Source: Lasiodiplodia sp. COLG20
Taxonomy: Eukaryota > Ascomycota > Dothideomycetes > Botryosphaeriales > Botryosphaeriaceae
Direction of reading: 5' to 3'
Length of the DNA: 64,000 nucleotides
Assembly (NCBI GenBank): GCA_009801085.1
Contig: VNWV01000020.1
Location: 186,001-250,000 of the forward strand
This document shows positions 32,682 through 58,799 of this stretch, piece by piece. The first letter of the stretch is position 1, and every line of letters starts with the position of its first letter. The translations under genes were made by a program, and so were the position numbers. Under the pieces are notes generated by a model. That model was not told the origin of the DNA. It saw only the letters and a program-made list of their open reading frames with translations, and ran no database searches.

Positions 32682-33008
32682 TAGTGCCCACAACTGTTGA
32701 AGAAGGGGTACTCACTGATTCTGTAGAGATATTCCGCGTCTATAGATAATTCGAGGATTGATTCCCGGGCGAGCTCAACTCCAGTTCAAGCCGATCCCCG
32801 CCCTCGAGCTCCTCCCAGCGCACGAGAGTCTTCTGATTCAAGGGCTGATAGAATAACGTCGGCGTTCAGCGCCTGTGTGGCGGCGGCGGCGGATCAGATT
32901 TCAGATGCGCGTTTTGTTGGCATTACCGGCTTAACAGTGGATAAGGAGACCCTCTCCCTGTCAGCGTCTGACACCAAGCCAGAACTAGAGTTTCTGCCTA
33001 CTGAGTCG
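32661..33008 (+). other. Candidate intron plus open linker joining AAA+ and HET frames
   Basis: GTACGA at 32,661 and CTGTAG ending at 32,726 would form a 66-bp phase-0 intron with a CTGAT branch-like site. From 32,727 to the HET ATG at 33,009 the frame is open for 94 codons and in phase with both genes. The peptide is Ser/Pro/Ala-rich, like a linker. If unspliced, this is the 3' UTR of the AAA+ gene plus the HET promoter. Confidence 0.45.
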
Positions 33009-35651: not shown

Positions 35652-36521
35652 AAAGTATACGAAAATTACTTTTTGCAACTTCGAAAGGCTGGAGAGAACG
35701 GTTTCTCCTCAACAAAGCTACTCACAAAAAGTCAGCTGGCTCCTCCTATTTTGATTGTGATGACTTTTCATATCGGACCGCTGAGAGCGCTCAAAGTCGT
35801 TCGTCTCCGAAGATGGCCGGGGTAGGAGCGGAAGCAGCCTATTCGTCAAAGCGATTGATCACAAGCTCAATCATGGAATTTCGCTCCAAATCCTTCATAC
35901 TTCCATTGAACATTAGTATAAGTAGTAAAGACGGGCCAAGTCAAAAGGCGTTGAAATGCTCGCCGTTTATCAAATTCCAGGTTCTTATCACATCACACAA
36001 CCACCTTCTGCCCTACAACGTGGGCCAAAGGTTGATTTATCGCTTGGTTTGTATTATACTCCGATGGATGGTCCGTTGTTGGATCGAGGATTAAATCCGC
36101 GCTCGGTATCTTGGTGTTTGATTTTGTTCTGCCTTCAGGCATAAGGAGTTCAGAGCGAAAGGAGTAGTACTAAGAGTATTCCTTACTCAGAAGTCAGATT
36201 TATTGTATACATGATATACCCCTGGCTACTACCCGGCGAGGATGAGCAGCAAAAGTTAGTAAGCAATGCCCTGCGCGGGGATTCTCTTTGGGGGCGGCTC
36301 GCGTAAAGTGACCCTTGCAATGAACTCGCGTGTCGTGGTCAGCTGTGCTTTTCTTACCCTTCAAAACGTTTACGCTCACCGCGCACTCATGGGTCGATGA
36401 ATTCCCGCGTCGGAAAGGATCCTCGGTGTAGTACGCCATCATCTACCTCCCATGCATAGTGCAGCAGGGTAGCCAGCTGCATCGCCGTGATATTTCGAAG
36501 GAGCGCCGCATCGTGCACAGC
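35652..36521. other. Intergenic, 5' of canonical HET gene
   Basis: No supported gene. Upstream sequence in frame with the next HET gene begins at a GTG (36,459) but contains no ATG before 36,522. Confidence 0.5.
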
Positions 36522-38420
36522 ATGGAGGAAGAAACACACTCCGCCCCGCGCCCCGCCTACGAGTACAAACCGTTCGATCACCACCGCAAAATTCGCCTAC
36601 TCCAAGTCCTGCCCGGGGACGGGTCGCGAGATATCCACTGCATTCTCTCCGAGAGTGACACTAGCGCACGATACGAGGCTCTGTCGTATTGCTGGGGCTC
36701 TGAGACCGCCACGTCTCGACCTTCAATCATCCTGGAAACCGACGACGGGCCCAGATCTCTGAGCATCACACCAAACCTTCACCTAGCCCTCCAGCATCTG
36801 CAACTCCCAAACAGCTCCCGGCATCTCTGGATCGACGCCGTCTGCATCAACCAACACGACAACACCGAAAAAAGCATCCAAGTCCCCCGGATGAGTCAGA
36901 TCTACCGCAACGCCCTCTCCGTCTGCGTCTGGATCGGCAAAGAGGAATCGGACGCCGAACTCGCTATCAGCGTCATCGACCGCCTCCTCAACAGCCTGGA
37001 GCGGAGCGACACGGTCACCATCACTCAGCCCGAAGCATCCGCCTTCATGAGCTTCATCGACCGGCCCTGGTTCAGCCGGCGATGGGTCGTGCAGGAGGTG
37101 GCGCTGGCGCGCCACGCCACCATCTTCTGCGGCAAGAAGGAAGTCGAGTGGACCAAGCTCGCGGCGGCCATCAGCCTGCTGCAGGACCGCTACCAGAACA
37201 AAGGCATACAGTCGCACGAGCCCGCAGTTGCTGGCTGGCACCGCTCTTACGCCTCGTTCATGACCGGCGCCCCCGCAACACGCCTCGTTGACGCTACCAC
37301 GACAATGGTCTGCAAGCGCGATGACGGTACCGTGTGGCCCTTGTATACTCTGGAGACGGTCGTCGCCGTCCTCGCGAGTTTTGAGTGCGCGCTGCCGCAG
37401 GACGTGCTGTTTTCCGTCGTCTCGCTGTGCGCGGACCCGGGGAAGGACCTGCTCCAGCAGCACGCAGACGCCGATGCACATTGCACACATGACTCTGATG
37501 TCGAGGTGCAAGAGGGCCTGCGCGTCGACTACAGCTACGACTTCCCCAAGGTCGCGCAGGACTTCATCACCCTCGTCCTCTCCGCCTCGAAGCGCGTCGA
37601 CGTCCTCTGCCGGCCGTGGGCGCCCAACATGCCGGACATGCCTTCGTGGATAGCGAAATCGTCCGGGCGAGCGTGGGAGCGCGCCGGGCCGCGCAAATAC
37701 GCGCGCGCGAACGCGGACCCGCTCGTCGGCATCGCGAACCGGAAGTACGCGGCGTCGGGCAACCTCGGGGCGTTCGGCTGGCGGTTCGTCGAGCACGGGA
37801 GTAAACTCAATCCTGCGTATGCCTGCCTTTGCGTGAAGGGGTGCGTGGTTGACGTCGTGGTAAAGCTCAGTGCTAGCGCGGCCGCCGCCGGGGTGATCCC
37901 GGTGCACGAGTGGGCGGCGATGGCGGGATGGACCGATTTCGACGCGCAGTTGCCGCCAGTCTCGTTTTGGTCTACGCTGGTGGCGGATCGGGGGTTGGGC
38001 GGCGGTCCGTGTCCGACGTATTACTCGTATGCGTGCCAGGTTTTGTTTAAGAGGTGCGCGGCTGGCACGCTGGATCTGGAGGAGCTGCTGGATGGTAGTG
38101 GGTTGCCGTCGTCTGTTGCGGAGTTTATTCGGCGGTTGGAGTGCGTGGTTTGGAATAAGAAATTGGCCATTACGTCGAATGGGCAGGCGGCCTTGGTTCC
38201 GCAGACGGCGTGTGAGGGCGATTTGATTTGCATTCTGTACGGGTCTTCTGTTCCCGTTGTCCTGCACAGCCTAGAAGGAACTGCTTTGGAGACTACGATT
38301 CAAGATGGTATAGACTGTATCCTGAGGGGAGATTGCTACATGCACGGCATAATGTACGGAGAAGCAATGGCCAAGGGATTCCAGTCAAAGCGCGAAAGAG
38401 TAGAGTTTCGATTACATTAA
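36522..38420 (+). CDS. Canonical HET-domain protein (group C)
   Basis: Single exon, 632 residues from the ATG at 36,522. The HET domain begins near residue 20: PFDHHRKIRLLQVLPG, then YEALSYCWGSE, LWIDAVCINQHD, EKSIQVPRMSQIYRNA, VCVWIGKE and WFSRRWVVQEVALAR. These are the textbook HET signatures and differ clearly from the SHTWGR/SLWTLQE variants nearby. The C-terminal region contains a VDYSYDFPKVAQDF block and a terminal EGDLICILYGSSVPVVL segment, both common in HET proteins. The coding sequence is more GC-rich than neighbouring HET genes, suggesting a different origin or less decay. It converges with HET B2 across about 120 bp. Confidence 0.92.
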   Translation: MEEETHSAPRPAYEYKPFDHHRKIRLLQVLPGDGSRDIHCILSESDTSARYEALSYCWGSETATSRPSIILETDDGPRSLSITPNLHLALQHLQLPNSSRHLWIDAVCINQHDNTEKSIQVPRMSQIYRNALSVCVWIGKEESDAELAISVIDRLLNSLERSDTVTITQPEASAFMSFIDRPWFSRRWVVQEVALARHATIFCGKKEVEWTKLAAAISLLQDRYQNKGIQSHEPAVAGWHRSYASFMTGAPATRLVDATTTMVCKRDDGTVWPLYTLETVVAVLASFECALPQDVLFSVVSLCADPGKDLLQQHADADAHCTHDSDVEVQEGLRVDYSYDFPKVAQDFITLVLSASKRVDVLCRPWAPNMPDMPSWIAKSSGRAWERAGPRKYARANADPLVGIANRKYAASGNLGAFGWRFVEHGSKLNPAYACLCVKGCVVDVVVKLSASAAAAGVIPVHEWAAMAGWTDFDAQLPPVSFWSTLVADRGLGGGPCPTYYSYACQVLFKRCAAGTLDLEELLDGSGLPSSVAEFIRRLECVVWNKKLAITSNGQAALVPQTACEGDLICILYGSSVPVVLHSLEGTALETTIQDGIDCILRGDCYMHGIMYGEAMAKGFQSKRERVEFRLH

Positions 38421-38544: not shown

Positions 38545-40243
38545 CTAATACAACGCGATATTGATATCCTCCCATACCGGCAGCTCCGTGAGCGGGAGGC
38601 TAGAAGGGTAAAGACCCCAAAGGCAAATACCCATGCGTCGCCAGCCCGCACTGCAATCATCTCGGTATACTATGAGTCCAAGGAAGGACTCCCACTGCTC
38701 GCCAAACTCTGAGAAGAAGTCTTCAAGAATCGTTCCGAGCACAACGACTTGCAGGTTGGCCGCAGGAAAGCTCGAGATTAATCGTTTACATGCCTCGTAG
38801 TCATCAGTCCAAGTCTCCATGGCGATAGTCTTGCTATAGCTGTAGTAAAACTCAAATTCGTTGAAGTCCTCGCCTTTGTGCGATAGAAAGACGGCATCAT
38901 AGTCCAGCATGACTTCCGCGCCATACTCCTTTGCCGTCGTGATCCCAGGTAACCTTTGCCACAATTGCTCCAGCCGCTGCAATGAACAAGCCGGGCCAGT
39001 GACAGTGACTGCAGGACTGCCAGGACTCTTCAAAATGATGCAGTTGGTCCGCGTGTTGTTTCCAGAGCCGTAGATATCATTGAGGGACATCGGAACGCGC
39101 GAGTGCTGAGTGATGCGCCAGCTTCTGCCCTCCGCCGAGCTCTTCTTGTGTATGAAGCTCTGGCCGACCATGGGCGAGCGTTCGTTCAAAACCGCGGTGA
39201 ACTCGTCTTCTAGTTCCTCCACGGATTTGATGGTCCGGCCGGCCCGGGCCGCTTCTCCTACGGCGATGCCGTAGATCTGCATGATTCCGTAGATGCGGTC
39301 GAGCGGGAACGCCGTCTGGCGGAACCCGGCTGCTGCGTACTGCACGTTTGGGTTGCTCGAAACCAAAAAGTGGAACCCGGCTTCTTCGATGCGGGATACC
39401 AAGCCCTCGGCTGCGGAGCTCTCGGGCTTGATGCGTTTGCTTTTCAGACCCCGTTGTACATCCAGGCAGATGTTTCGACATATGTTTGCGAGCATCGTCA
39501 GGCTGACATCCAGATTATCAATCCAGGGGTGTGGAACCGGACGTGCATCGCGAGAGAGTATGACGGCATCTCGTCTCAGGACTGACTCCTGCAGCGTCCA
39601 GAGAGATGTGAACCAGGGATCGTCAAACAGTCTCTCGAGGTTCAGCTGTAGCGTAGCCGCTACCGTTGGAAAGTCAGCTTTGATCATGTCGGCCTGCGGG
39701 CCGAACTCAAAAACGGTGTGGAGCACGTTTTTCAGCTCCACGTTGCTAAGCGAGTGAAGCCACACGAATGCTCCTTTAGCGCCCTTGAAGATCCCCACCT
39801 GTCTTCCGACCTCGTGCATTTTCATCTCATTGTCTTCTTGATCGATGCACGCAATGTCTACCCAAGCGTAGTCTGTCTCGTACCCCATGACTTGGATAAC
39901 GCGGTGGAATGCTTCGACAGTAAAGCAGCTCTCTTTGACTGGCGGGATCTTCCAACTTGTCCCCTTTACGTTGAGGGCCGCACAGCCCCAATCAGCTCTG
40001 AAGCGGCCCCACGTATACGTCAAGACGCAATACTTTGGCTCCTTATCCACACCGTACGTATTTTCCCCTGTCCTCTCGATCGAAGTCATTGTTGGGATAT
40101 GAAGCAACCGTAAAGGCCACTGTATTGGCACGTCCGCCCACCAGAGCTCGTGGAACTGATGTTACAGTTAGCTTTGCAGTGTGGAGCTAATCAATCGTAT
40201 GAGTGCATACCGACTCCCCTTGAAAGTTGCGAGAGCGGGACAT
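38545..40243 (-). CDS. HET-domain protein, group B (copy B2)
   Basis: Two exons, 40,243-40,211 and 40,155-38,545, encode 547 residues. The first exon is only 11 codons (MSRSRNFQGES). The 55-bp phase-0 intron has a GTATGC donor, a GCTAAC branch site and an ATCAG acceptor. The second exon starts FHELWWAD and runs through WPLRLLHIPTMTS, YCVLTYTWGRF, AWVDIACIDQ, EVGRQVGIFKGA, FVWLHSLSN and WFTSLWTLQESVL. The C-terminal half includes YGIMQIYGIAVGEAARAG and ends WEDINIALY. The homology and layout match B1. A decayed fragment of a close relative of this gene lies at 57.1 kb. No ATG exists in frame in exon 2 before the HET domain, which supports the short first exon. Confidence 0.85.
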
Positions 40244-42068
40244 GGCGCAGTATCCTCTGCCGTTAAAAATGTCTTGTTGTTGTACAGGAGACGAGAAATA
40301 TGAAGTGGTGTCTTCGTACCATACACGGAGGTGGAGCGGCTGATCGTCAGCATGCGAATTTTGCGGGCGCTTGACAAGGATTCAGATCCTTGCTCCCGAC
40401 ATATAATTGGCCAAGTATGAGTACAGTTCCGTTCTCTTACCAATCCATTGGCTTCTGTTGCACAGAAACCAGGCTACAGCGGCTCTGCGTATCACCAACG
40501 TCTGACACAATACGTAATACCATACAAGCTCACGCCCAACCCTATCATGGCAGGATATTTCCTGCAGTACATCAGCAACCAATTCTGACTCTTATTCAGT
40601 GGAGCGTGTGACCTCAATCCAGTAACGCTTTCGTCTCGTGCCAGATTCATTTATAAGAGGATGAATCTGGCTGTGTGTATCCATCCCGCATCCTGGCCCC
40701 CTGCCACAAAGAGCAGGAATTCCCCAGAACCTGTCGGGTTGGTAATCCAACCATTCCGTGTGTACTATCATCGTCGTTATCTTCTTCGTCTTCTCCTCCG
40801 GCGCCTTGAACGGCGAGAGCTCGCCCAACAAGAAGACAGACCGATTGTCCTTCAGCAGCTCCTCCGCCACAAAAGATACCCGAGAACTTTATTCTCAAGA
40901 CTCAGGTCACTCCCAATTTTGCGAAGCTCAGCAGGGATATTCCCCAGCACGAACTACCACGAGTACAGCGTCAGCAAAACCACAGGCTCCGGGGTAAGCT
41001 CGCTGCCAGTACTTCAGAATGTGCGGCCCTGAAGTAGGTTGCTAACACGTTCCGAGATGATTGTGAGTAAGTCATGCTGACCAAAAATAAATTGCGGTTT
41101 TGAATGCATCTGGATGATTGCAACCGTCGAAGACTCGGATTACACATCTCAATTTAAGCTTCTTGTCTGATGCGTTCCGGGGCGTTGACTGTTTCAGGCT
41201 TACGGGTCACGGATGGATTCGGCACAGGTCCCGCCGGCGCCTTACCTGGCGAAGGTAAGCAACGCCTTCCAAAGCCCCCACTGTGCTTTTCGACTAATAT
41301 TTGAAGCTGAACGCAGAGGTGTAATAATTCTGGTCTCTTCTTGATAGATGGCCAGGTTCGTTGCCAAAGATATATCACTCTGAGTGGGCCTGCGGCGGTG
41401 TTCTCTCAAAGTGTATGCAGTGCCAGGGGTAACATTGTGTTTCCAGACAACGGGAAGAATGATGCCTCCATTGAAATCAGCCAGCTTATAGCAATTGCGG
41501 TCAGCCAGTGGGCTCCCTCTGCATCATCACCCTAATTTTGATCCTCGGAATCAGCAATTATCTCTCGGATTAGACAATCCATTCCCTGTAGAGCTAAGCC
41601 TGATACCCCTTTATGTAAATCTGAGAGTACGCAAGAAATGGACATCTAAGTGAATGTTCTTATATTCATGGTCTTACAGGATATACAGGGAAGAGTATAC
41701 AAGGCATGACCGAAAGATAACATGATTGGCGAAAGTTGTTTGCTGGGACTGAACGTGCTTCGGGATCGCCTCCACCGGATGGCAAACCAGTTTCATCTCT
41801 GCTGGAAGATGGAGAACAACAGTTTGAACGCTTATCCTACTACAGAATGAAATTCCTGGTCTTGATGCCGCGGCTTTCAACCAGCCGCATAATCTTCGTT
41901 GCTTTCCAAACATCACTTAACTCTTACACTTCGAGCCTGTTTGCGGCTGCCACGCAGTCACGGCAGATGCATACGTCGGGTTCACCTCATAGATAGCACT
42001 TCAAACTTACACGCCCACAACGCTTCGAGTCTGTCCAATACCTACGCCATCTCAATGCTGGTAAGACG
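40244..42068. other. Gene-poor stretch
   Basis: No supported gene. It includes the left copy of a roughly 390-bp duplicated segment (40,980-41,370) listed separately. Confidence 0.5.
40980..41370. repeat. Segmental duplicate, copy 1 (pairs with 57,350-57,745)
   Basis: Diverged non-coding sequence shared with 57,350-57,745 in the same orientation. Shared landmarks are TAAGCTCGCT, TTGCGGT, TTAAGCTTCTTGTCTGATGC versus GTAAGCTTCCTGTCTGATGC, GGATGGATTCGGCA and GCGCCTTAC. It lies upstream of HET B2, just as copy 2 lies upstream of a B2-like relic. Confidence 0.6.
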
Positions 42069-46011: not shown

Positions 46012-46437
46012 AGGAGTGCATCATATTACCCCAACACTTACACATGCTTTTTGGTTATCGAGATTGGATTTAACTTTGCAAATTTGGGGGTTTGAGACGG
46101 CTTTGGCTCTCTGCATCTAGGCAATTTAGCAGCCGGAGGACAAAAGTGATTTTCATTGAATACGAGACATTTACTCTGATCCACACACATGACCTGCACT
46201 CGTGATTCGAAGCTCCTGCGACAGAGATGATGCTTGTGGAAACGTTCGCGAACATCGAGAAGTAGGTTGTCGGGGCATGGAGATGACGTGTGTAGTTGAA
46301 AGTCAAAGTGGGGCGGGGCAGCGTATCGATAATCACCGAGCCAACGCGTCCCTGAAAGCAGGAAAGCCGCGCGCAAGCTCTCGCCAATCTCCAACACCAC
46401 CTCGACCTGCGCTGCTCACACTCGCTCCACACCCACG
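46012..46437. other. Intergenic upstream of haspin-like gene
   Basis: 3' flank of the coiled-coil gene and 5' flank of the kinase gene. The last 50 bp are C/A-rich (CACACTCGCTCCACACCCACG), a typical leader. Confidence 0.5.
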
Positions 46438-48706
46438 ATGGCCCGCATAAAGACGACATATGGCAAGCGGCCTAAGGCCAACACCACCTTCGCTGCCTCG
46501 ACCGATTTCTGGTCCAGCCCCGACAAAGCCCCGTCCAATGCCAATCCCGCGCCCGCAGACGCCGTTGACGAGATCACGAACACCCTTGACAACCTAGACA
46601 TAAGGGAGAAGGAGAAGCAGGAGAGAAAGGAGCGGAGAAAGAAAGAAAAGCGGGACAGAGCCCTACAGGCTATTGACGCCAATGCCGCCTCACCAGCCGG
46701 CGCGCGCGAGAAGGCGATCATCAAACAGACGCACGACGATGGCGAGCTCCAGAAGCCCGCAAAGATCGATATTTCGGAAGCAGCAGTTGTTCCCAAGACG
46801 CCCCAGAGACTCAAGAAGCTACTCCCGCCGAAGAAGAAGCTCGAAGAAGCCAAGAATGTCGAGCAAACGCCTCAAAGCGAGCGCAGGCGGCGGCGCGGGA
46901 AGCGCGACATCCCCACCATCATTCTAGGCAGCGAAGACGACGACGACGCTGCCATGGACCAGCAGCAACAGAAGCGCAGATCCCGCGCGCTGTCCAGCCC
47001 CGAGCCCGCGCACCACCTCTCGACCAAGACCCCAGCTCCGTCCACCGTCCACCGCCGCAGCAAATCCCCCTCCACCTCCACCGCACGCAAAGCCTCCTCC
47101 ACGCCGTCCGATCCACTCACCACCTATACCAAGCCCCTCCTCCGTCTCTGCGCCGACCGCGCCGGCCGCAAAGCCCCTACGCCCTTCGCCCTCTGGGCCG
47201 CTGCGCTCTCTCCCTACTTCTCCGTCGCCAAAATCGCAGAAGCCTCCTACGGCGAGGTATACCGCCTCGCGCTAAAGCGCGCGCAGCCAGGGTTGAGTGC
47301 CTCGGATGAGTCGGTCCTCAAGATCATCGCGCTCAAGCCGCCAGAAGACGCACGGCCCAAGGCCGCGAAGGGGAAGAAACTCACGAAGGCGCAGAAGGCG
47401 CTAGCGGAGAAGATCGACGGGATGAGCAGCGTCGAGAGCGTCGCGGGCGAGATAAAGTTGCTGCGGCGCATGGCGCACGTCCCGGGTTTCACGAACTTTC
47501 GCGACGTGAGGGTGCTGAGGGGACGCCCGGACGAGATGTTTGCGCGGGCGTGGAAGGAGTGGAATGAAGGGAGGGAAGAGGAGAAGAGGAGTATCTTCCC
47601 TGACCCGGCGAAGAAGGGGAGTTATGATGAGGATCAGCTATGGGCAGTCATCGAGATGCAGGATGCCGGGACGGATTTGGAAAATTTGAAGATGGAAGAT
47701 GTGGGAGGCGTTTTTGGGGTTTGGGATATCTTTTGGAGCGTGACGCTGGCGCTGGGGAAAGGCGAGGAGGAGGCGAGGTTTGAGGTGAGTCGTCCCGTTC
47801 TTACATCACCTTCTTTCCTTCAGGATGGACCTTTCTAACGAGCATCTGGCACTCTAGCATCGCGACCTCCACATGGGCAACATTTGCATCCGCCCCGCCG
47901 ACGCCAACCGCCCCATCGCCGCCCCGTCCTCCTCTGTCACCGATATCGCCCGCAACCTCAACTTCACCGGCCTTGAAAGCACCATCATCGATTACACGCT
48001 GTCGCGTGCGCAGATGACGCAGCCCTCCGCCTCACCGGATCCCGAAGAGGCCGAAATCGCTTTCCTTGACCTTGAGGCCGACCCGGCGCTATTCGACGGC
48101 GACGCTGAGGAAGAATACCAGTACGAGATGTACCGCTACATGCGCGCTGCCATGTTCCTAGGCGACCCGCTGGCCGATGTCGAGGAGAGGTGGGACGAGG
48201 CGCTGGATAGTGGAAGGACATGGGTTGGGTTTCACCCGCAGACGAATCTGGTGTGGTTGCATTTTATTTTACATGAGATGATGAAGCAGATCGTGGCTGC
48301 CGCGCCGTCGGACAAGGGGAAGAGCACAAAGGGCAAGAAGACGAAGGCGAAGAAGAAAGACGGCAGGCCCACCCGAAAGAAGCTCGTCGTAGTCGACTCG
48401 GAAGACGAGAACGAAGACTTCTTCGCTGCCCGGCGGGTACAAGACGCAGCTGACGAAGCGGAACGCGCGGCCCTTGAACAGCTCGTCGCCGACAAGCGCA
48501 AGAAGCTGGAGAAGATCCTGAGGAAGGTTCAGAAGCTGCTCGATCCGGCGCGCTGGGCGAAGAGCGAACTGCATTCCGTGAAAGACCTCGTCGCCCTGGC
48601 GTTGGAGGAGGCATGGTTGGATGAGGAGGACGTCATTGCCGTGCCGCAGTTGGGCGATGAGGGTGAAGGGAGTCTGTTGGAGTTGGTGAGGGGGATGGGG
48701 GTTTGA
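46438..48706 (+). CDS. Haspin-family serine/threonine kinase
   Basis: Two exons, 46,438-47,784 and 47,858-48,706, give 731 residues. The 73-bp phase-0 intron (GTGAGT donor, TTCTAACG branch, CTCTAG acceptor) falls exactly before the catalytic loop. Residues 1-240 are a disordered basic region with a Lys/Glu coiled stretch and KRR/RRRRRGKR clusters (nuclear). The kinase part has a divergent glycine loop EASYGEVY, VLKIIALKP with the catalytic Lys, ESVAGEIKLLRRM (helix C Glu), AVIEMQDAG at the hinge, HRDLHMGN and IIDYTLSR. HRDLHxGN and DYT in place of DFG are haspin hallmarks. Haspins phosphorylate histone H3 Thr3 and help place the chromosomal passenger complex. A Lys-rich insert with an acidic DSEDENED stretch interrupts the C-lobe, lengthening it compared with the usual domain. 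Confidence 0.92.
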
Positions 48707-49328
48707 TGAGGTGGTTCATGACCGCGAGTGTTTTGCTTGTTTGGGAATAAGGCTACAGCATTGGTGGCGTTGTTTTTTGTGGGCTGGGTAGGTACGATTG
48801 GTTGGCATGCTGGCGCAAAGGCGGTTCGTTGTGGTATTGTAATACGATACGATGCAAGTGAAGCTTCTGTTGAGACTTTTCGTCAGGGTTCTCATCGTGA
48901 TCCGCGCTTACTTTTGCGGAACTACAGCAGGCGAGAAGGGTACTTAACCAGAAGCTGTTTTCAAGCACACCAATGCAGTTTATAAGCCAGTAAGCGAAGT
49001 CATCCCGGTATGCTAGCTGCGCTCGAAGAGGTGGTGCTTGGTTAAATGAGAGCCTGAAGATTTACGTAGGGTACCCCAAGTTGCCACCCGTCCTCTGTGG
49101 GTCAGAAAGAGGTCGAAGGTTCGAGGACGAGCTGGGGAAGACAAAAAAGACGGTCCCAAAGAGTCTTTCTGAGCGTTAACCCGCATGTAGCGGGGTTCAG
49201 TTTTGCCATTTTCGTTGACAACACTTCTTTTTTTTTTCTTCTTTTTCGCCAGAACCACTAGTAGGCAAGAATGGCAGGGAATCTCGAAACCGTCATGCTT
49301 TATTGCCAAGATTTGCAATGCTGCGCAC
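48707..49328. other. Intergenic
   Basis: No supported gene. Contains a 22-bp T/C-rich tract (TTCTTTTTTTTTTCTTCTTT, about 49,225-49,246). Confidence 0.5.
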
Positions 49329-49508
49329 GTAATCTGAGGTAGAAACGCTACGAATAGCTTGATCCCAGACCAGGGACAACCCGTTGCGCAAATACCATCG
49401 TGGATGCGCCGTTGGGACCACAGCGCAGTCGGTACGATCAAGTGCCGCGCAACGCTAGCGCCGCGCTCAGCATTGCCGCGTTCGCTGGCTCCCGCATCGA
49501 CTGCGCCG
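49329..49508 (-). pseudogene. MFS transporter fragment 1
   Basis: Minus-strand sequence matching part of the intact MFS gene (about 51,950-52,183). Encoded remnants are PTALWSQRR versus PNALWANGA, and SMREPANAAMLSAALAL versus SMREPANVAMLCTALAL. It carries frame changes and a small internal deletion. It lies head-to-head with SSP1, the same arrangement as the intact MFS gene and SSP3. Confidence 0.7.
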
Positions 49509-49583: not shown

Positions 49584-49595
49584 GTATATATATAT
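49584..49595 (+). promoter_or_regulatory. TATA box of SSP1 with conserved upstream element
   Basis: TATATATATATC about 60 bp before the ATG. It is preceded by TCTACCGCTAG, which is also found directly before the TATA-like TATACATATC of SSP3. Confidence 0.6.
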
Positions 49596-49652
49596 CGTCC
49601 AAAGCCCACCTTTTCAGTGCTTTCGCCGCCACCGTCGGCAACTCCAGCAGCT

Positions 49653-50169
49653 ATGAAGCTTTATAGCCTTCTTGTTGCCGCTAGCTTCCTAGCTACCCTT
49701 TCGGCTGCCCTTCCTGCGCCTACTCCGACCCCGACCGCTACTGGGGTGAAGATCGTTCCTGCGTCTGGCACCGTTATACCTGGACCTACTCCGACTTCGG
49801 GTCCTACTCTTATGCGAAGGTAAATACAATCAAGCTACTAGTCTAATAGAGTACTAATATGTAAAATAGAGATTGGGATCTTAAATGTATACTGCTAGAG
49901 CTAGGGCTTATCGAGAACTTAACACCCTCGACGATTACACTTAATCGAACTGGACGAACAAGACTCAATCCTCATCTAAGAAAAAGGTATATAAATTTAA
50001 AATAAAGCGAATCGCCTAGTAGAGTACTAATAGTTAATATAGAGCTGACCTTAAAGCCATATGCCAATCTATAAAGGAAGGGAAGCTTGTGCATCATAGG
50101 TTCACCATACCTGATTATGTTACCAAAACATCGATTACGTTGCCGTTCAATCCGTACGGTGATCCATAG
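49653..50169 (+). CDS. Small secreted protein SSP1 (YGDP family)
   Basis: Three exons, 49,653-49,819, 49,870-49,986 and 50,043-50,169, give 136 residues. Both introns are phase 2 with canonical TACTAATA branch sites and (A/T)TAG ends. Residues 1-19 are a signal peptide (MKLYSLLVAASFLATLSAA). A Pro/Thr-rich linker (LPAPTPTPTATG) follows to about residue 55. The conserved domain contains LLELGLIEN, ITLNRTGRTR, ICQSIKEGKL and the C-terminal NPYGDP. All four paralogs share this architecture, splice positions and 3' flank (GCTAGGATTTTCGTATAA). I know no family with this signature. A secreted effector, toxin-like or recognition peptide is possible; none of these is shown. Confidence 0.78.
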
Positions 50170-50537
50170 TCTTCGTAGCTAGGATTTTCGTATAATTAGG
50201 CGAGGCAATAATACTTCTTCTAGTTTCGCTACTCGATATTGATCACCTCCGCGTCCAGAACGCTTTTCGCTTTCACGTTCTCTTGCATAAAGAAAATTAA
50301 TCGAAGGTTCTGTTGTTCGTAGAGTTTGACCCACGTATGTACATACATACCCTACTATGGTAGGAGGCGTAAGTAATGTTAGCGCGGCTTTGACAGCAGG
50401 GGGTCTCAACGCCAATTCAACCAACCAGTCTTCTGTGTTTGCCTTACACGGACCCTGCCAAAGAATCCGCGCTAAAATTACTTATGCCTCCTACCATAGT
50501 ATACGTGGGTATCTATAATCGCGGGCCACCCTGTGAA
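50170..50537. other. Intergenic between SSP1 and MFS fragment 2
   Basis: The first 60 bp are the conserved SSP 3' flank. A 17-bp motif is repeated in inverted form: CCTACTATGGTAGGAGGC at about 50,350 and GCCTCCTACCATAGTA at about 50,486. Confidence 0.5.
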
Positions 50538-50690
50538 TTGACGACTTTTTTTCTTGTTTCACCCCCACCTTTCCGGGCCCTTCTCAGCCTCCCCAACAGG
50601 CATTGACTACCACAGCAACCGCGCTCAACGTGAAGCAGTATCCCCCCTCTCAAGCCGGCCCTACATCCCTGCAAAATCGCCTCTCCCTGT
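50538..50690 (-). pseudogene. MFS transporter fragment 2 (3' end)
   Basis: Minus-strand copy of the 3' end of the MFS gene at 51,400-51,545. Remnants are AILQGCRAGLRG versus ALLQGYKAGWWY, and CLLGRLRRARKG versus WGLRRVGKVG, with frame changes. It lies head-to-head with SSP2. Confidence 0.72.
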
Positions 50691-50730
50691 CTGCGGCTCC
50701 TCAACCGCCATAAACACGTCGGTGGGAGTT

Positions 50731-50740
50731 GTATATATAT
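50731..50740 (+). promoter_or_regulatory. TATA box of SSP2
   Basis: GTATATATAT, 58 bp before the ATG. The following leader (TCAAAGCCCGCCTCTTTAGT then GCTTTCGCCGCCACCGTC) matches the SSP1 leader. Confidence 0.6.
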
Positions 50741-50797
50741 TGTCAAAGCCCGCCTCTTTAGTGCTTTCGCCGCCACCGTCAGCAATTCCCAGCAGCT

Positions 50798-51284
50798 ATG
50801 AAGCTTCATAGTCTTCTTGTAGCCGCTGGTTTCCTATCTACCCTCTCGGCCGCTGTTCCCGCGCCTACTCCAACCTTTACTGCATCTGGGACTATGAACA
50901 CCGTCGAGGCCGTTGCGCCTCCTGCGACTTCGGCTCCTACTGTCATCTTGCCAAGGTAAATACAACAAAGCGACTAGCCTAATAGAGTACTAATATAATA
51001 TAGAGGCAAGGTGGAAGACTATTGTGCACTGGTCGAGCTAGGACTAGCAGAAAACAGGGAATTTCGGAAGGTTACACTCAATCGAACCGGAAAAACACAA
51101 ATCTTTCCAAGGTACCTATATAAAATTAAGCGACTCGTCTAGCAGAGTGCTAATATTTAATAGAATGGACACGAAAGAGTGGTGCAAATCTATACGGGAA
51201 GGAAAGCTTACGTATCGGGTGCACCATCTCCATCCTGGTAAGAACATCATTACTTACGCGGTGAACCACTACGGTGATCCGTAG
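50798..51284 (+). CDS. Small secreted protein SSP2 (YGDP family)
   Basis: Three exons, 50,798-50,955, 51,004-51,111 and 51,164-51,284, give 128 residues with both introns in phase 2. Branch sites are TACTAATA and GCTAATAT. Signal peptide MKLHSLLVAAGFLSTLSAA, then VPAPTPTFTASG and a Pro/Ala/Thr linker. The conserved domain reads EDYCALVELGLAENREFR, VTLNRTGKTQ, then after intron 2 MDTKEWCKSIREGKLTY, HHLHPGKN and the C-terminal NHYGDP (His replaces Pro of the consensus). Two cysteines (EDYC and EWC) are shared with SSP4 and probably pair. The promoter and 5' leader are nearly identical to SSP1. It is the closest paralog of SSP4 over the mature domain. Confidence 0.8.
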
Positions 51285-51406
51285 TTGGGGTTCATGAAAG
51301 TGTATCTCTAGCGTAGCTAGGATTTTCGTATAACTACCTTCGCGTCCGGAACGCTTCTCACCTGCTGTTGTAAAAGGCAGTTTGAGGGCCGCTCTGAAAT
51401 GACGAC

Positions 51407-53574
51407 TTACTCTTGCTTCACTCCCACCTTTCCGACCCTCCTCAGCCCCCAGGCACTAACCACCACAGCACCTGTGCTCAACGTGAAGCAGTACCACCAG
51501 CCAGCCTTGTATCCCTGCAAAAGCGCCTCCTCGTTGCCACGACCGTCCTGCACTTCGGCCGTCACGCGCATTGCGACCGCCGCTGTTGTGGCCAGGCCGA
51601 CGCTCTTACCAATCTGCGCCATCGTGTTGAACACTCCGCCCGCCAGCGCCTGCGTTTTCTCCGGGAACGCCGCCGTGATAACCAGGTTCGCAATCGTGTA
51701 GATGACGTCCGGCGCGACGACGTTGAGCGCCATGGCCTCGAACACAGCGTGCCAGTATCCGGGCCCATCCACTCGGCACAAGAGGGCCAGAATCAACGGC
51801 GCGACAGCCGTGACGGCGCAGGCCGCAGGCACAGCGACGGCGGGCTGCATCAGCGGCAGCAGTGCGCCGACAGCGACATTAACGAGAGTGCCAGCAATGG
51901 GCGCGGGCAGGAAGTACAGCGATGACTGCAGCGGTGCAACTCCGCGGACGTACTCGAGGTAGAACGCCATGAACTGCTCCACACCATTGAACGCGCCCCA
52001 GACGAGGAAGACCGTGGCACAGACCGTCGTGAACGCGCCGTTGGCCCACAGCGCGTTGGGAATCAGCGCCGGCCGTCCCAGTCGCGCCTGCCGCCGCATC
52101 CACAACCAAAACGCCGGCAGCAGCGCCAGCGCCGTGCACAGCATCGCCACGTTCGCCGGCTCGCGCATCGACCGCGCCGCCCCTGTGATGGCCGCGAAGA
52201 CGTACGACAGCAGCGCCAGCGCCGTGCTAATGACCAGCGCCCCGACCCAATCGATGTCCTTCCCCAACCGCCGCCACGTACTCGCATCCAGCAACCGCGG
52301 CTCCCTCTCTTTCACTCTCGGCAGCGCCCACGCCGCGACCACCCCAAAAACCGCACCCAACATCGCCGCGAGGTGAAACACCCACCGCCAGCCGACGGAC
52401 CCGGCGAGCGCCCCTCCCAGCGTCAGTCCGGCAGCGAACCTTACGGCCTGCGCGCCACCCATCGATGCGAAAGCGGCATTACGCCGCCGAGTACCTTCCG
52501 CGAAGCTCCGTGCCACCAGTGCCACCGCTGACGGCAAGCACAATGCCGCCGCGACACCCGTCAATCCGCGGAATGCGATCAGCACTTCACCACTACGCGC
52601 GAGACCAGAGCCCAAGGCGAAGACGGACTGCAGCGCCGTCCCGGCGAGGTAGGCGCGACGGGGCCCCAGGGCATCGGCGAGGGTGCCGGATAACAGGAGC
52701 GTGCAACCGCAGGTGAGGGAGAAGATGGATACCGGCCTGCCAGCGTCGGTGTCAGTGTTGTTCACGCTGTCTCTGGTGTGTGTATGTGTGGAGGGGAATT
52801 CGACGACCGGCATTGGGCCTACGAGAGCCGCACGCTCTCTGGGATTTTGTAAGTTGTTTCTCCGCTCCTGCAACCTCTGGTGGTGAGTCCATCTCTCTCG
52901 GGTTTCTTTTTTCGCTCATGTTATGGGTAACTGAAGCTATCGCCCGAACGAGAATGTCGAATTAAAAATTCTACATACACGTCCGGACGATAACTTCAAC
53001 TACCCGCGTATGTCATTTTTCTAACGCAGAGCTAGGGCACAGTTACGCTCGATCAAAAGCCCTGCTACTCCTTGCGCCAGCCATCGGCCGATCCACGGAG
53101 CCGCCCAGCTAAGCTCCCGGGACGTCGAAATCGGAAAGGATTGGGCGGCGGTCGCACAGATCGTCGTGGGGGGCGTGGGCGCCTCCGTGGTGATGGCTTT
53201 CATTGCGGAGCCGCCGGGCGGGAAGGAGAGGAAGACGGGCCTGTTGGGGTGCTGTGTGGTGGGAATGGGGGAGAGGCCTACCAGAGTCGCACGCTCTCTG
53301 CAAAGGAAAGCTCATCTGCTATGACCGGAATACAGACTGTCAGAGCTCCGGCGAGCAAGTTGCCGATTCCGGTAATGCATGTGATGGAGGCAATGATGGC
53401 TACTGTTCTGCTCGTCGAGACGTTGGACCCGTCTTCTTCGACCACCACAGGCTCGAGCACGTGTCCTGAACCATGGCTCGTTCGTGGCGCTGGGAGCGTG
53501 GGCGAGGCTCTGGGAATTGACGTCACTTCAAGAGTTGTACCGGTGGTCGGCACCTCGGTAACTGTCTGGGACAT
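51407..53574 (-). CDS. MFS drug:H+ antiporter-like transporter (DHA2 type), with a large intron
   Basis: Two exons, 53,574-53,282 and 52,736-51,407, join in frame to 540 residues, a normal length for 14-helix DHA2 transporters. The first exon has a cytoplasmic Thr/Ser-rich tail and helix 1 (RTVAIIASITCITGIGNLLA), ending at SVRLW. The second continues PVSIFSLTCGCTLLLSGTLA then DALGPRRAY (motif A), AFRGLTGVAAALCLPSAVAL (helix 4) and further helices, to VVVSAWGLRRVG. It would export small molecules using the proton gradient; the substrate is unknown. The 545-bp intron (GTAGGC donor, GGCAG acceptor) is about ten times longer than its neighbours. It contains a fold-back element, a second copy of the exon-1 end and a foreign coding-like piece, so expression may be impaired. 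It is divergent from SSP3. Confidence 0.75.
52925..53005. mobile_element. Short fold-back element (hairpin copy 2) inside the MFS intron
   Basis: Two 33-bp arms (52,925-52,957 and 52,973-53,005) form an imperfect inverted repeat around a 15-bp loop. The arms match hairpin copy 1 at 42,717 and carry the same TCCGGACG-type core. Confidence 0.65.
53072..53285 (+). pseudogene. Foreign coding-like fragment in the MFS intron
   Basis: Plus-strand frame reading GKDWAAVAQIVVGGVGASVV then MAFIAEPPGGKERKTGLLGC, which looks like part of a membrane protein. It is antisense to the MFS gene and has no start or end. Source not recognised. Confidence 0.3.
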
Positions 53575-54212
53575 TTTCCCTGCCTTTTGAGAGGGCTGAA
53601 ACGATGCACGAATTCAACTTGGGGGTTTTTGATTCTGAGAAGACAGTAAAGTTAAAGAGGAGTCACTGAAACTGGCATTGGGAAGAAGAGACGTGGCTAA
53701 AGTGCCGTACACCCGTTCAATACGTAATCGGCGCCTTTCCCCAAGCAGACAAAGTGATGCCGATCACTTCAACCTTGAATCAACATGCACGCCCGAACGA
53801 CAACTTCAACCATCTACGTTCTGAACTCTTTCCGTTACTGCGCAGTGGTCCAAATTTGTGGGGTTCTCGCCCGAGATCTGAAGCTCCTTGTGAATTCGTT
53901 TGTTTCAGGACTTTCAGCACCGCCAGGAAGTTAACCTAATTAGGAAATATAGTAAAAGCAATCCATTGAGTTCAAACATCGTTTACGTTGTTGAATCCGC
54001 CGCTATGGATGGTGTTGAGGGGGAGGAAGGAGGAGATGTTGGGGGTGGTTGTTGGGCTGCAGGGACTATAAATCCGTGGATGTGAGTTTTCCAGCTTATC
54101 TACCGCTAGTATACATATCTTCGAAAACTTCCTCTAAATTGCTTTCACCACCACCCCCAGCAACCACCACATTACCGACACTACCAACAACCATCGAGGA
54201 CCATCGACAGCT
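53575..54212. other. Divergent promoter region, MFS / SSP3
   Basis: Contains a lone 30-bp arm of the fold-back family at 53,783-53,812. Also contains TATA-like elements ACTATAAATC (about 54,066) and TATACATATC (about 54,110), the latter preceded by the conserved CTACCGCTAG. Confidence 0.5.
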
Positions 54213-54676
54213 ATGAAGCTTATCAGTTCTCTTGTAGCCGTCGGCTTTCTATTTGCCCTCTCGGCCGTCGCTATTCCTACGCCAACTCCGGCCTTTACTA
54301 CGTCCAGAACCATGACTACCGTCGCCGAGGCCGCCATGCCACCTCCGACTTCGGCTCCTACTCTCATGCCAAGGTACATACAACAATAACAAAACAACTA
54401 GCCTGATAGAGTACTAATATATTATAATATAGAGGCGATGATGATATCGAAGGCTATTGTCTAATGCTAGAGCTAGGGCTTATCGACAACGTGGAAGCTC
54501 GGACAACGGTTACACTTAATCGAACTGGAGTAACAAGAGTAACAAGATCTCATCGACGTGATTTAAGAGGCATATGCAAAGGCCTAAAGGAAGGGAAGCT
54601 TACGTATGACGTACATAGGCTCCATCCTGGTCATAACAAGATTACGATGAAGCACAATCCGTGGGGTGATCCATAG
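54213..54676 (+). CDS. Small secreted protein SSP3 (YGDP family, intron 2 absent)
   Basis: Two exons, 54,213-54,373 and 54,433-54,676, give 134 residues. The single phase-2 intron has a TACTAATAT branch site. Signal peptide MKLISSLVAVGFLFALSAVA, then IPTPTPAFTTS and a Pro/Thr/Ala linker. The domain reads EGYCLMLELGLIDN, VTLNRTGVTR, ICKGLKEGKLTY, HRLHPGHNKIT and the C-terminal NPWGDP (Trp replaces Tyr). The position of intron 2 in the other three copies is here continuous coding sequence (RSHRRDLRG), so this copy has lost, or never gained, that intron. Its 3' flank ATAGTTGATGGGTCGGG is identical to that of SSP4. It is divergent from the intact MFS gene. Confidence 0.8.
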
Positions 54677-55879
54677 TTGATGGGTCGGGATTCACCAAAT
54701 GAATGCGCAGTATTCGATTACTATTTTCATGGTCAAGTGCGATTCTCATTTTCGGAGAATACTTGAGAGTTGACGATTCGTTGATTTTGGAAGAGTGCTC
54801 CGGTGACGATACACCTCGTCTTGAGTAGATGTGCGTGTGCAAAATATTTGAATAGCCGATTCCAATCTGAATAGCCCACCCTTTCGACATGCAGTGTGAA
54901 GAGACAATCTGCTGCTGCATTCATGTACGTCTACTCGTTGGAGTTGAGGTCGTGAGGGTAAGCTGGTGCTGCGTCTCAAGGGCCTTCAGTGTTGAAATCA
55001 GGCGGCTGAGCTGTGGCGGCAGCCAGCGACGAAACGTCGGCTGAATCTTCCGCCGGCCCTGGCCGCATTTGGGTGCGCCCGATCGTCGCGCCGCGCCCCG
55101 CCAAACCAACACCATCCCACCAATAACCCGCGTTGCCGTCGCGGATCGCCACAATACGATCGAAGTTCGCCGGGCCTTTCCTGATTCCGCAATCCCAGTC
55201 GCGGGGATTCTCTCCTCGATCTTCAACCAAGGGTAACTTGTCCCGACCGAACCGAGCGGACACTGTAGCTCTTCTACTCGAAACTCCGCCAAACGCAATG
55301 ACCTGGGAAATTTTTCGAGGTGAAATGCTTTTCCTTGCTTTGAAGAAATCAAAATGCAATGACGTGAACTAATTACATGCACAGGCAAGCTCAACCAGTC
55401 CCTCCGAACACCTTCACGCTTGCTATAGAACTCGGAACATCAATAGAAGCCCCGGTAGGCTTATGACATTATATGGATCCCCCTGCGCAAGGCAGCTCGA
55501 GCTGGACTGTCGGATGGTTGCTAGCGAGGTGGGTCAGCTACACAGTGTATCCGGCTATTCACAACATAATCCTCTCTCCACCTTTCAAGCTGCGGCGCTG
55601 CGGCACACGGAGGTTTGATCTGCACCGACAAATGTACTTGCGCCCAGGCTCTGGTGTGGCTGTACTAATACCATGATTGTCACTGCAGCATCCAGGACGC
55701 CAATGACTGCCCCATTTCTTCGTACCCAATATCGCCCAAAGTCCCTCAAGCATAGCTTCGCTTTCGCACACGGTTGTAATCTTATCCAATCAGAAGAATG
55801 AGAGACCGGGCCTCTTTCCAAATTTTCGGCTCCCCTTGGTTTCTACAAAGGAGCCTTTGGCTGGAAATTGCAGACGTGA
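54677..55879. other. Intergenic, possible coding relic on minus strand
   Basis: Minus-strand frame 55,359-54,976 includes a plausible stretch (NPRDWDCGIRKGPANFDRIV), but its ends are undefined and overlapping frames compete. Not accepted as a gene. Confidence 0.4.
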
Positions 55880-56200
55880 TTGCTTGGAACACTTGTCAAA
55901 GAGCTATGGCCGTCTATAGCAGAGGTTCAGCACTCCCATGGCCAAGACCGAGACCAAGAGAAAAGCCCTGGGCCGGACAACATCCAGATCATACGCGCCA
56001 TCGCTGACTGGGTACCACATGAAGAGCCTTGCCTCCGTTGAAGTCTTTGTCGATGTCATGAGCGAAGAACAGCCGAACTCATATCGTCTGCTTTTTTACT
56101 TCTGGACAACCGCATTTCAGCACCATCAATTCCTGCCACGTACTTGCACTCCGCTATATTGTAGACTCCTCTACCCTGGCGCTGTACAGTATTGTTATTT
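55880..56200 (+). pseudogene. Group A HET N-terminal relic
   Basis: Three successive frames carry pieces of the group A N-terminal region closest to HET A3. These are LVKELWPSIAEV (A3: FVEAMWVVVAEI), then NSYRLLFYFWTTAFQH (A3: NSYRLLFDFWTAEFQH), then after a one-base loss SIPATYLHSAI and DSSTLA (A3: SIPLAYLAFFI, ESPTLA). No HET domain follows. It is a decayed fragment that lies upstream of SSP4. Confidence 0.75.
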
Positions 56201-56386
56201 GATTGTTCTTTTTTCGCTTGCACTCAGTGTGTTGCACCAACGCTTTATGAGCCGATCGCTGGTGACGCTGAAATACTCTTCCTCAACAGGGTGGGTAGTG
56301 GTTAGTGGGGCTGGGAGGATCGTGGTCGTGGGGCCCTTTACCATAGAAGAATTTTCTACTTAGCGTATCGGCAGCAAGTACAATAG

Positions 56387-56409
56387 GTATATATATATAT
56401 ATATATATC
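56387..56409 (+). promoter_or_regulatory. TATA tract of SSP4
   Basis: An 11-fold TA repeat about 70 bp before the ATG, longer than in the other SSP promoters; preceded by ATTTTCTACTTAGCG. Confidence 0.55.
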
Positions 56410-56477
56410 GTTGAAGCTCGCCTATTGATTGATATCAGCACCACCGCCAGCACCACCGCCAGCAACCATCGACAGCC

Positions 56478-56969
56478 ATGAAGCTTAGCAATTTTTTCGT
56501 GGCCGTTGGCTTCCTAACCCTCTCGGTTGCCCTTCCTGCGCCTACTCCGAGCTTCACCGGGGTGAATGTCGTTCCTACGTCTCCCACCATGACCACCGTC
56601 ATACCGACACCGGCTCCTACTCTCATGCCAAGGTAAATACAACAAAGCAACTGGTCCAACACAGTACTAATATATTGTAATATAGAGGCTATGTTGAAGA
56701 CTATTGTGCAGTGGTCGAGCTGGGACTAGCAGAAAACCACACATTTCGAACCGTCACACTCAATCGAACCGGAAAAACACAACTTTCTCCAAGGTATACA
56801 AATTGAGCGAATCGTATAGTAGAGTTCTAATGATTAATATAGAATGGACACGAAAGACTGGTGTAAATCTATAAGGGAGGGGAAGCTTACGTATCAGTTG
56901 TACGACCTCCCGCCTCCCGGTCAAACCACAAGCATTACGCTGCCGATAAATCCATACGGTGATCCATAG
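56478..56969 (+). CDS. Small secreted protein SSP4 (YGDP family)
   Basis: Three exons, 56,478-56,632, 56,686-56,793 and 56,843-56,969, give 129 residues. Both introns are phase 2 (branch sites TACTAATA and TTCTAATG). Signal peptide MKLSNFFVAVGFLTLSVA, then LPAPTPSFTGVN and a Thr/Pro linker. The domain reads EDYCAVVELGLAENHTFR, VTLNRTGKTQ, then MDTKDWCKSIREGKLTY, PPPGQTTSIT and the C-terminal NPYGDP. It shares both cysteines with SSP2 and its 3' flank with SSP3, so the copies have probably exchanged segments. The family lies in 7.3 kb, all on the plus strand. Confidence 0.8.
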
Positions 56970-57119
56970 TTGATGGGTCGGGTTCAGTTTCCAGCGTAGC
57001 TAGAATTTTCCTCTAATAATCGAGAGGCGACAAAGCGCCTCTTTGTTTCACTATTACATGAGCAATCCTCGGCCTGGTTCAGGTTCTTCAGAGAGCACAC
57101 CTTGCTCACTACCCGCACT

Positions 57120-57300
57120 CAACAACGGTATCAAGTAGGATCTTCAGCTGGATGTTGCTGAACGAAATGAAGCTACACGAATGCCTCCCTTGGCGTCTTC
57201 AAAAATTCCAGTCTGTCTCCCAACCTCATGCGTCTCCATGTCATTGTTTTCTTGATCGATGCACGCCAGCTCATTCTCGGTTCCGCGAAAGCTCAACGGG
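57120..57300 (-). pseudogene. Group B HET relic (close to B2)
   Basis: Minus-strand remnant ACIDQENNDMETHEVGRQTG then IFEDAKGG, against B2 ACIDQEDNEMKMHEVGRQVG then IFKGAKGA. The next motif FVWLH has become FV-stop-LH in another frame (Trp TGG to TAG). The rest of the gene is missing. With the duplicated flank at 57,350 it marks a deleted copy of the B2 locus. Confidence 0.8.
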
Positions 57301-57349
57301 ATCTTACCGGACGGCCAGCTGCAACGGATCCAGCGCAAGTAACCAAACA

Positions 57350-57745
57350 AGGCCCGCTGGATAAGCTCGCTACCAGAGTTCTGGAACACATTGCACGGCG
57401 GGGATGCTGCTGATGCGCCCTCTCGGATGGCTGCGGGTATTTCTCGCTGGCACAAATGAGTTGCGGTATTGCATGCATTTGAATGCTTTGCTACTGTAGA
57501 AGCCTTGGATCGCACATCCTAATGTAAGCTTCCTGTCTGATGCGTTTCGCGGCGGTAACTGTTTCAGGTTTGCAGGTGGCGGATGGATTCGGCATATGGG
57601 ACCCCCGCCCGCGCCTTACCGGGCGAAAAGAAGCAACACCTTCCGACACTTGCTCACAGATTGCTTTTGATCCAAGCTTCGGGGCCAAGCGCAGTGAAAT
57701 AAATAACTCCAACCAGCTTTCTATTGCTAGTCAAGTTCGTTACCA
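57350..57745. repeat. Segmental duplicate, copy 2 (pairs with 40,980-41,370)
   Basis: Diverged copy of the region upstream of HET B2, in the same orientation and adjacent to the B2-like relic. About 1.1 kb present between the two parts at the B2 locus is missing here. Confidence 0.6.
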
Positions 57746-58799
57746 GTGAGGTTTCACATGTGGTGCTCGGTGTTCTTCACCGGGTGGTCGGGTTTGGGGT
57801 GGGGAAAGGGGCACAGACGGAGGCCAAGCTTCGACCCCGGAAAGCTTCGTCGACGTAAGCGGCGGAGCATGCGGATGCTGTCGTGTCTGAAGATCAGCGT
57901 GTCTTGAAGACCAAGCGAAATTGGGATGTTGAGGCGAGGGATGACGTGCTTGTATCCGAATCTGGAACGGGTTTCAGTTTCCCCACTGTGCTTCGGAAGT
58001 TGCAACACCATGCCAAGAATCGCGATGATCGATGAATGAATGGGTCGATGTGGAGGCGTGTCCATCTCGAGTAAGCGGGCGGCCTTGTTGATAGGAGAGA
58101 GGCTGTGCTTGTCTGGCCTGATATTTTTCTGTTGGGTAGGTGGATAATTTTGTCGTGAGGCAAATACGACTCAACGCATTTATGCCCTGAAAGCGAGATC
58201 AAGGGATACACTTCGCAAAAACATAAAAATGTGATGATGAATCCACAGATCCCCGTTGATTTTGCGGGAGTTGCGGAGAAGTGATGATAAGGCGCAGTGC
58301 TAAAATAGAGCCACGATCTTGGCTGAAGCTTGCGAAAAGCTTAAACTTCGCCGTGAATACCTGATCTGGGTTGTAGGCCCACTTAAGTAACTCTGTTCTT
58401 GATCTTCTGCTAATTATATCTTAGTTCGATACGATATTTGGTTATTATGATGCAAGTTCGGCAGGGCGCGTTTCCGAATCCAGGGGAAGACGGAGATCCG
58501 GCGCTTGAAGTAACAAGGCCCGATTTTTGGCTTATGAGCCCGGGGCTTAATCTGGGTGTTATTGCACCATTTCAGTTGCTGACGAAAAGAAAGCTGTCTT
58601 GCTTATTTTCCAAATAGACACAAATTTCTCGATCGTTGATTATTTTTCGCATAGAGTCTCTTCCACTTCCTTCACTCTAGTTTATCGCTCGCTTCCTTCC
58701 ACCTGTCCTTGATTTTCGTACTCCTTTTTTCTCGCAGGGCGAGTTTCGAGCTTTTATTTACTATTGTCTACTTATTTCGCATCATTCCATTTCCGTACC
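57746..58799. other. Intergenic upstream of antiporter
   Basis: No supported gene. The last 150 bp are pyrimidine-rich (CTTCCACTTCCTTCACTC and similar), a likely promoter/leader. Confidence 0.5.

What the first reader, a model, noticed from the sequence alone, without database searches (positions are those of the whole stretch)
49584..56969. Four-copy cluster of an unrecognised small secreted protein family ending in (N)(P/H)(Y/W)GDP
Seen: SSP1-4 share a signal peptide, a Pro/Thr linker, a domain with ELGLxxN, TLNRTGxT and (S/G)(I/L)(K/R)EGKL, and a strictly C-terminal GDP. They share phase-2 intron sites, TATA-type promoters and 3' flanks. Conservation of the domain and C-terminus against a fast-changing linker implies selection on the mature protein. 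Inference: a secreted recognition, toxin-like or effector peptide family. I know of no described family with this signature.
Basis: partly seen in the sequence, partly recalled or inferred. Interest (0 to 1): 0.88.

Follow-up and report, generated by a model that had tools for sequence, protein, structure and literature searches.

The report
Twice-cut small secreted fungal protein family
A fungus, probably a relative of the woody-plant pathogen Lasiodiplodia, carries a cluster of small secreted-type proteins that match no known family and look built to be cut into two short, related chains, with both predicted cut sites written at the joins between the gene's pieces.

Summary
The four genes are real and intact; a fifth lies 26 kb beyond SSP4, outside the window. 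They encode 128-136 aa precursors: signal-like N-terminus, Pro/Thr segment, then two short segments with one Cys each, ending in GDP. No Pfam family reaches E 0.04; two searches of 5.8 billion proteins gave four unannotated relatives. A neighbouring transporter is 97% identical to one of Lasiodiplodia hormozganensis. Best reading: Kex2-processed, lineage-restricted effector- or toxin-like peptides, possibly two disulfide-linked chains. Expression, cleavage and function are untested; structure models are low-confidence. A new variant of Kex2-processed pro-domain effectors.

The parts
49653..50169 (+). SSP1: exons 49653-49819, 49870-49986, 50043-50169; 136 aa precursor
   Evidence: GT-AG phase-2 introns, TACTAAT branch-type sites
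50798..51284 (+). SSP2: exons 50798-50955, 51004-51111, 51164-51284; 128 aa
54213..54676 (+). SSP3: exons 54213-54373, 54433-54676; 134 aa; second intron absent
56478..56969 (+). SSP4: exons 56478-56632, 56686-56793, 56843-56969; 129 aa
49820..49869 (+). SSP1 intron 1, homologous to intron 2 and to the other family introns; splits an AGA Arg codon at predicted cut site 1
49987..50042 (+). SSP1 intron 2, splits an AGA Arg codon at predicted cut site 2
50956..51003 (+). SSP2 intron 1 (98% over 48 bases to SSP5 intron 1)
51112..51163 (+). SSP2 intron 2
54374..54432 (+). SSP3 intron 1
56633..56685 (+). SSP4 intron 1
56794..56842 (+). SSP4 intron 2
51407..53574 (-). MFS transporter convergent to SSP2 (PF07690): main exon about 51407-52735, probable first exon from 53574 to about 53290; the intron between them seems enlarged by an insertion flanked by 26-base repeats
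   Evidence: (97% to L. hormozganensis); the first exon (no Pfam match) and the splice are inferred by reading
49314..49508 (-). degenerate MFS fragment upstream of SSP1 (like 51935-52179)
   Evidence: 68% and 85% pieces
50500..50717 (-). fragment like the 3' end of the MFS gene, downstream of SSP1; 86% to the stretch downstream of SSP5, 76% (50531-50683) to 51392-51529

Best explanation
A lineage-restricted family of Kex2-processed small secreted proteins. The signal peptide is removed; the Pro/Thr segment acts as a pro-domain cut off after [LI]x[PR]R; a second Kex2-type cut at the second exon junction divides the rest into chain A (36-42 aa, one Cys, NRT sequon) and chain B (38-41 aa, one Cys, ending GDP), which could stay joined by the single disulfide. 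Both chains descend from one intron-exon unit by internal duplication: introns 1 and 2 are homologous, all introns are phase 2, and the split AGA codon at each junction supplies the P1 Arg of the cut. The mature parts then diversified among clustered copies. Most likely role: an extracellular effector or antagonistic toxin-like peptide. Shown by sequence: gene models, two cut-type sites, Cys placement, intron homology, family restriction, rate pattern. Inferred: secretion, cleavage, disulfide, role.
For: In 6 of 6 full precursors (SSP1-5 and P0001) exactly two [KRP]R dipeptides occur, both at the aligned junction positions; P4 is aliphatic in 6 of 6 at site 1 and 5 of 6 at site 2, as in the Kex2 motif described in PMC8528282. 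Each half has exactly one Cys. [KRP]R-x(5,8)-C-x5-G-x(0,1)-L fits 12 of 12 halves and occurs once elsewhere in six frames of the window. 9 of 9 introns are phase 2 and split AG|A. Intron 1 against intron 2 in the four genes that have both, with donor and branch-to-acceptor ends kept fixed: 0 of 1000 shuffles reach the score in SSP1, SSP2 and SSP5, 19 of 1000 in SSP4; such introns were found nowhere else in the genome. In P0001 the ORF is continuous and reads as the predicted splicing would have it. Five intact SSP frames stand beside decayed MFS fragments.
Against: No transcript, peptide or cleavage data. The Arg at the junctions follows partly from splice consensus (AG before the intron, phase 2), though SSP3 keeps RR at site 2 without an intron. 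The exon 2 against exon 3 resemblance is weak on its own: hhalign E 0.027 with probability only 1.8%; 29 of 2000 column shuffles reach it (six of the eight sequences used); exon DNA no better than shuffles (289, 285, 51 and 93 of 300 in SSP1, SSP2, SSP4, SSP5). The AlphaFold models are low-confidence (pLDDT 55 and 61) and cannot tell one chain from two; in the second a strand runs across site 2. Intron 2 can be read through in frame in SSP5, P0002 and P0003, so other isoforms are possible.
Confidence: 0.5

Rival explanations
1. An ordinary single-chain Kex2-processed pro-domain effector: only site 1 is cut, and the two Cys form one intramolecular disulfide in a domain of about 75 aa. The [KRP]R at the second junction is a by-product of splice consensus.
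For: Site 1 fits [LI]x[PR]R in 6 of 6 and follows a Pro/Thr-rich, disorder-type stretch in the first half. The P0001 model has a helix-strand-strand-helix-strand-strand order with a strand across site 2 (pLDDT 61).
Against: Site 2 also carries [KRP]R in 6 of 6 and keeps RR in SSP3, which has no intron there.
Confidence: 0.35
2. Decaying or unexpressed duplicates: the copies are passengers of a duplication-prone region with no present function.
For: Domain omega is 0.745 and omega = 1 is not rejected; the MFS partner has decayed in other duplicates.
Against: 5 of 5 frames and 9 of 9 introns are intact; site rates vary strongly; two relatives, P0002 and P0003, come from contigs listed with the same length of 8,894 bases, taken to be one contig.
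Confidence: 0.08
3. A ligand for recognition between fungi (allorecognition or pheromone-like) rather than a host-directed or antagonistic factor.
For: The window is rich in HET genes: 6 of the 15 window sequences scanned with Pfam carry a HET domain.
Against: HET genes are numerous in such fungi in general (recalled); no receptor or partner gene was identified beside the SSPs.
Confidence: 0.07

Closest known systems
Kex2-processed pro-domain (K2PP) effectors such as SnTox3 and ToxA (PMC8528282; passages and section 4 read)
   Same: Signal-type N-terminus, disorder-type pro-segment in the first half, Kex2 motif (RR or LxxR type) before the mature domain.
   Different: No sequence relation found; a second conserved Kex2-type site divides the mature part; sites coincide with exon junctions.
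Yeast killer toxins processed from precursors, such as the alpha/beta heterodimer K28 (abstracts in a search listing only; disulfide linkage recalled)
   Same: Secreted precursor with several Kex2-type sites; possible two-chain product.
   Different: Chromosomal gene cluster with introns; much smaller chains; no sequence relation found; no killing activity shown.
Hessian fly small secreted salivary gland proteins (PMC2955719; abstract and section 7 read)
   Same: Clustered small secreted genes in which intron and signal regions are more conserved than the mature coding part.
   Different: Insect family; here positive selection is not shown, the flanks are not notably conserved, and the two introns of a gene are copies of each other.
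Pea aphid cassette effectors built from miniature exons (PMC7495047; start of abstract in listings only)
   Same: Effector candidates assembled from small exons.
   Different: Insect; here two exons only, joined at protease-type sites.

Membership tests
Kex2-processed pro-domain (K2PP) effectors | N-terminal signal peptide | tested here: inconclusive
   Lys near the start, hydrophobic stretch (mean hydropathy of residues 4-18 1.39 to 2.29 in 6 precursors); no signal-peptide predictor was available
Kex2-processed pro-domain (K2PP) effectors | Kex2 motif (KR, RR or LxxR) in the first half after a disorder-prone segment | tested here: met
   [LI]x[PR]R ending at residues 52-58 of 128-136 in 6 of 6; one of them (SSP2, ILPR) has Ile, an aliphatic alternative, at P4; the preceding segment is Pro/Thr rich
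Kex2-processed pro-domain (K2PP) effectors | Pro-domain shown to be removed by Kex2 | not testable with these tools
   needs protein
Kex2-processed pro-domain (K2PP) effectors | Effector activity on a host | not testable with these tools
   needs an assay
Killer toxins (K1/K28/KP6 type) | Sequence or fold relation to a known killer toxin | tested here: inconclusive
Killer toxins (K1/K28/KP6 type) | More than one Kex2-type site giving separate chains | tested here: inconclusive
   Two sites present in 6 of 6; cleavage not shown
Introner-like elements | Many near-identical intron copies across the genome | tested here: not met
   5, 5 and 3 matches, all inside this cluster
Any Pfam family | Match to a Pfam-A profile above its curated cut-off | tested here: not met
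   4 precursors: one weak match, DUF7099 E 0.31; 8 mature domains: ERCC4 E 0.043 in 2 members and three weaker families in 1 member each (the one score shown for ERCC4, 14.2 bits, is under its cut-off of 24); P0001: none at E <= 1

The most novel reading that the evidence does not exclude
An exon cassette for making processed peptides: a symmetric phase 2-2 exon whose two edges are at once splice sites and Kex2 sites (the split codon AG|A supplies the P1 Arg), so that copying one intron-exon unit adds one more secreted peptide chain without breaking the frame. The family would be a two-chain product of one such duplication, with intron sequence held more constant than synonymous sites, perhaps because it regulates splicing of the whole family or is homogenised by conversion.
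Probability: 0.3. Interest if true: 0.72.

Novelty: new variant of a known kind. Interest (0 to 1): 0.52.

Why it matters
If right, it is an effector-like family absent from the domain libraries searched and without a named protein among the relatives found, so secretome surveys may miss it. It also gives a concrete, testable route by which short processed peptides can arise and multiply: duplication of an exon that carries its own protease site at the splice junction. Introns more alike than synonymous sites in a secreted multigene family recall the Hessian fly case and make the same open question (homogenisation or function) testable in a fungus.
Full report
What is there. The window is G000:C13:186001-250000 of a 43.5 Mb assembly in 88 contigs. 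A fifth copy lies at C13:268597-269091. Protein searches of the whole genome with SSP2, SSP1 and SSP3 queries found no other locus at E <= 1e-3; two weak matches elsewhere appeared only with SSP3 (E 0.013 and 0.13).

Which organism. The transporter beside SSP2 is 97% identical over 442 aa to a protein of Lasiodiplodia hormozganensis; the next named hit, Neofusicoccum parvum, is at 67%. I infer a Lasiodiplodia or a very near relative in the Botryosphaeriaceae; no marker gene was compared.

Relatives. A profile of the four precursors found 3 proteins at E <= 0.01 (only the 7,994 candidates sharing most words were scored); a profile of eight mature domains found these and one more at E <= 10 among 3,734 candidates. 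The four carry no name. P0001 (129 aa, contig 4,128) is close to SSP3 and reads without introns; P0002 and P0003 come from contigs listed as 8,894 bases, which I take to be one contig, and read intron 2 through in frame; P0004 is a partial frame. No named protein appeared, although the same database holds a named Lasiodiplodia transporter: the family is either absent from those annotations or missed. Library scans: SSP2 none in Pfam, P0001 none at E <= 1, best of four precursors E 0.31, best of eight domains ERCC4 at E 0.043; NCBIfam gave a bacterial acyltransferase model at E 0.0028 in 1 of 4 precursors, taken as chance; PDB sequences nothing below E 3.9. The literature searches made listed no paper that I could tie to the family; sequences cannot be searched there. 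Of the Botryosphaeriaceae pan-effectome paper PMC13188853 I saw passages only, not its supplementary tables.

Anatomy. Each precursor has a hydrophobic N-terminus, a Pro/Thr segment, and two Cys. In 6 of 6 precursors (SSP1-5, P0001) exactly two [KRP]R dipeptides occur, at the two exon-junction positions and 5 to 8 residues before the two Cys. P4 is aliphatic in 11 of 12 sites. PMC8528282 (passages and section 4) gives P1 Arg, P2 Lys or several others including Arg and Pro, P4 Leu or another aliphatic residue for Kex2. 9 of 9 introns in the five genes are phase 2 and split an AGA codon, so the P1 Arg is spelled by the junction itself. SSP3, without intron 2, still has RR there. The NRT sequon of TLNRTG is in 6 of 6; a second sequon occurs in 3 of 6.

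Internal duplication. Introns 1 and 2 are alike beyond the splice signals: in the four genes with both introns, 0 of 1000 shuffles of the middle part reach the observed score in three and 19 of 1000 in SSP4. An intron tree separates intron 1 from intron 2 copies with bootstrap support 90 and 85, SSP1 intron 1 being unplaced, so the duplication is probably older than the gene copies. The halves share [KRP]R-x(5,8)-C-x5-G-x(0,1)-L in 12 of 12; in six frames of the unspliced window it occurs twice, once in SSP3 itself and once elsewhere. Against this, profile comparison alone is weak (E 0.027, probability 1.8%; 29 of 2000 column shuffles with six of the eight sequences) and the exon DNA shows nothing. 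That introns keep more likeness than exons is odd for a plain duplication and fits the next point.

Rates. Intron middle parts agree at 350 of 417 compared bases (84%) and fourfold sites at 341 of 488 (70%), pooled over the 10 gene pairs. The pairs are not independent and gapped alignment favours the introns. SSP2-SSP5 alone gives 49 of 52 against 35 of 51, one-sided p = 0.0007; 6 of the 10 pairs have p above 0.06, and in SSP1-SSP3 the order is reversed. Domain omega is 0.745 (0.689 with rate variation) and signal plus linker 0.626 (0.534). Omega = 1 is not rejected for the domain (2 delta lnL about 2.3) and only just for signal plus linker (about 4.1), with kappa tried at a few fixed values. 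Rate variation in the domain is strong (delta lnL 21.8 for one parameter). So the domain is a fixed skeleton with fast positions between. The Hessian fly family of PMC2955719 (abstract and section 7) shows a like contrast of conserved introns and variable mature parts, with positive selection, which is not shown here.

Surroundings. An MFS gene (PF07690) lies tail to tail with SSP2, and pieces like it lie upstream and downstream of SSP1 and downstream of SSP5. The ancestral unit was probably SSP plus MFS; the SSPs stayed intact in 5 of 5, the extra MFS copies did not. Six of the 15 window sequences scanned carry HET domains.

Structure. Two AlphaFold runs are low-confidence: SSP3 domain with ten rows, pLDDT 55; P0001 alone, pLDDT 61. 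Both place each Cys in a helix; strands follow both helices in the second model but only the first helix in the first. This suits two related halves but proves nothing. Fold searches gave nothing usable.

Judgement. A real, new, lineage-restricted family of secreted-type precursors; very likely pro-domain proteins processed at site 1, about even odds for cutting at site 2 as well. The role as effector or toxin-like peptide is inference from secretion type, small size, clustering and rate pattern.

Noticed in passing
50353-50501: Inverted repeat with 49-base arms, 84% complementary, in the 3' flank of SSP1; by eye the matching stretch near SSP5 lacks it, so it looks like a small MITE-type insertion.
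   Followed up: partly
52816-52841 and 53275-53300: 26-base direct repeats (92%) flank a stretch of about 430 bases inside the likely intron of the MFS gene.
   Followed up: no
52901-53000: Element of about 100 bases with diverged copies near 42.7 kb in the window and at several places downstream on the contig, on both strands.
   Followed up: no
10708-40161: Six large ORFs with HET domains (10708-13056, 20984-23302, 26882-29107, 32727-35648, 36432-38417, 38548-40161) make this a HET-rich stretch.
   Followed up: no
57113-57757: Stretch after SSP4 that is a diverged copy of 39701-39852 and 40903-41378; the first of these lies in a HET ORF.
   Followed up: no
L010:2513-2560: Intron 2 of SSP5 is 48 bases without in-frame stop, so retention would add 16 residues; P0002 and P0003 read through what looks like the same intron.
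   Followed up: partly
46333-48703: Haspin-like kinase gene just upstream of the cluster (PF12330).
   Followed up: no
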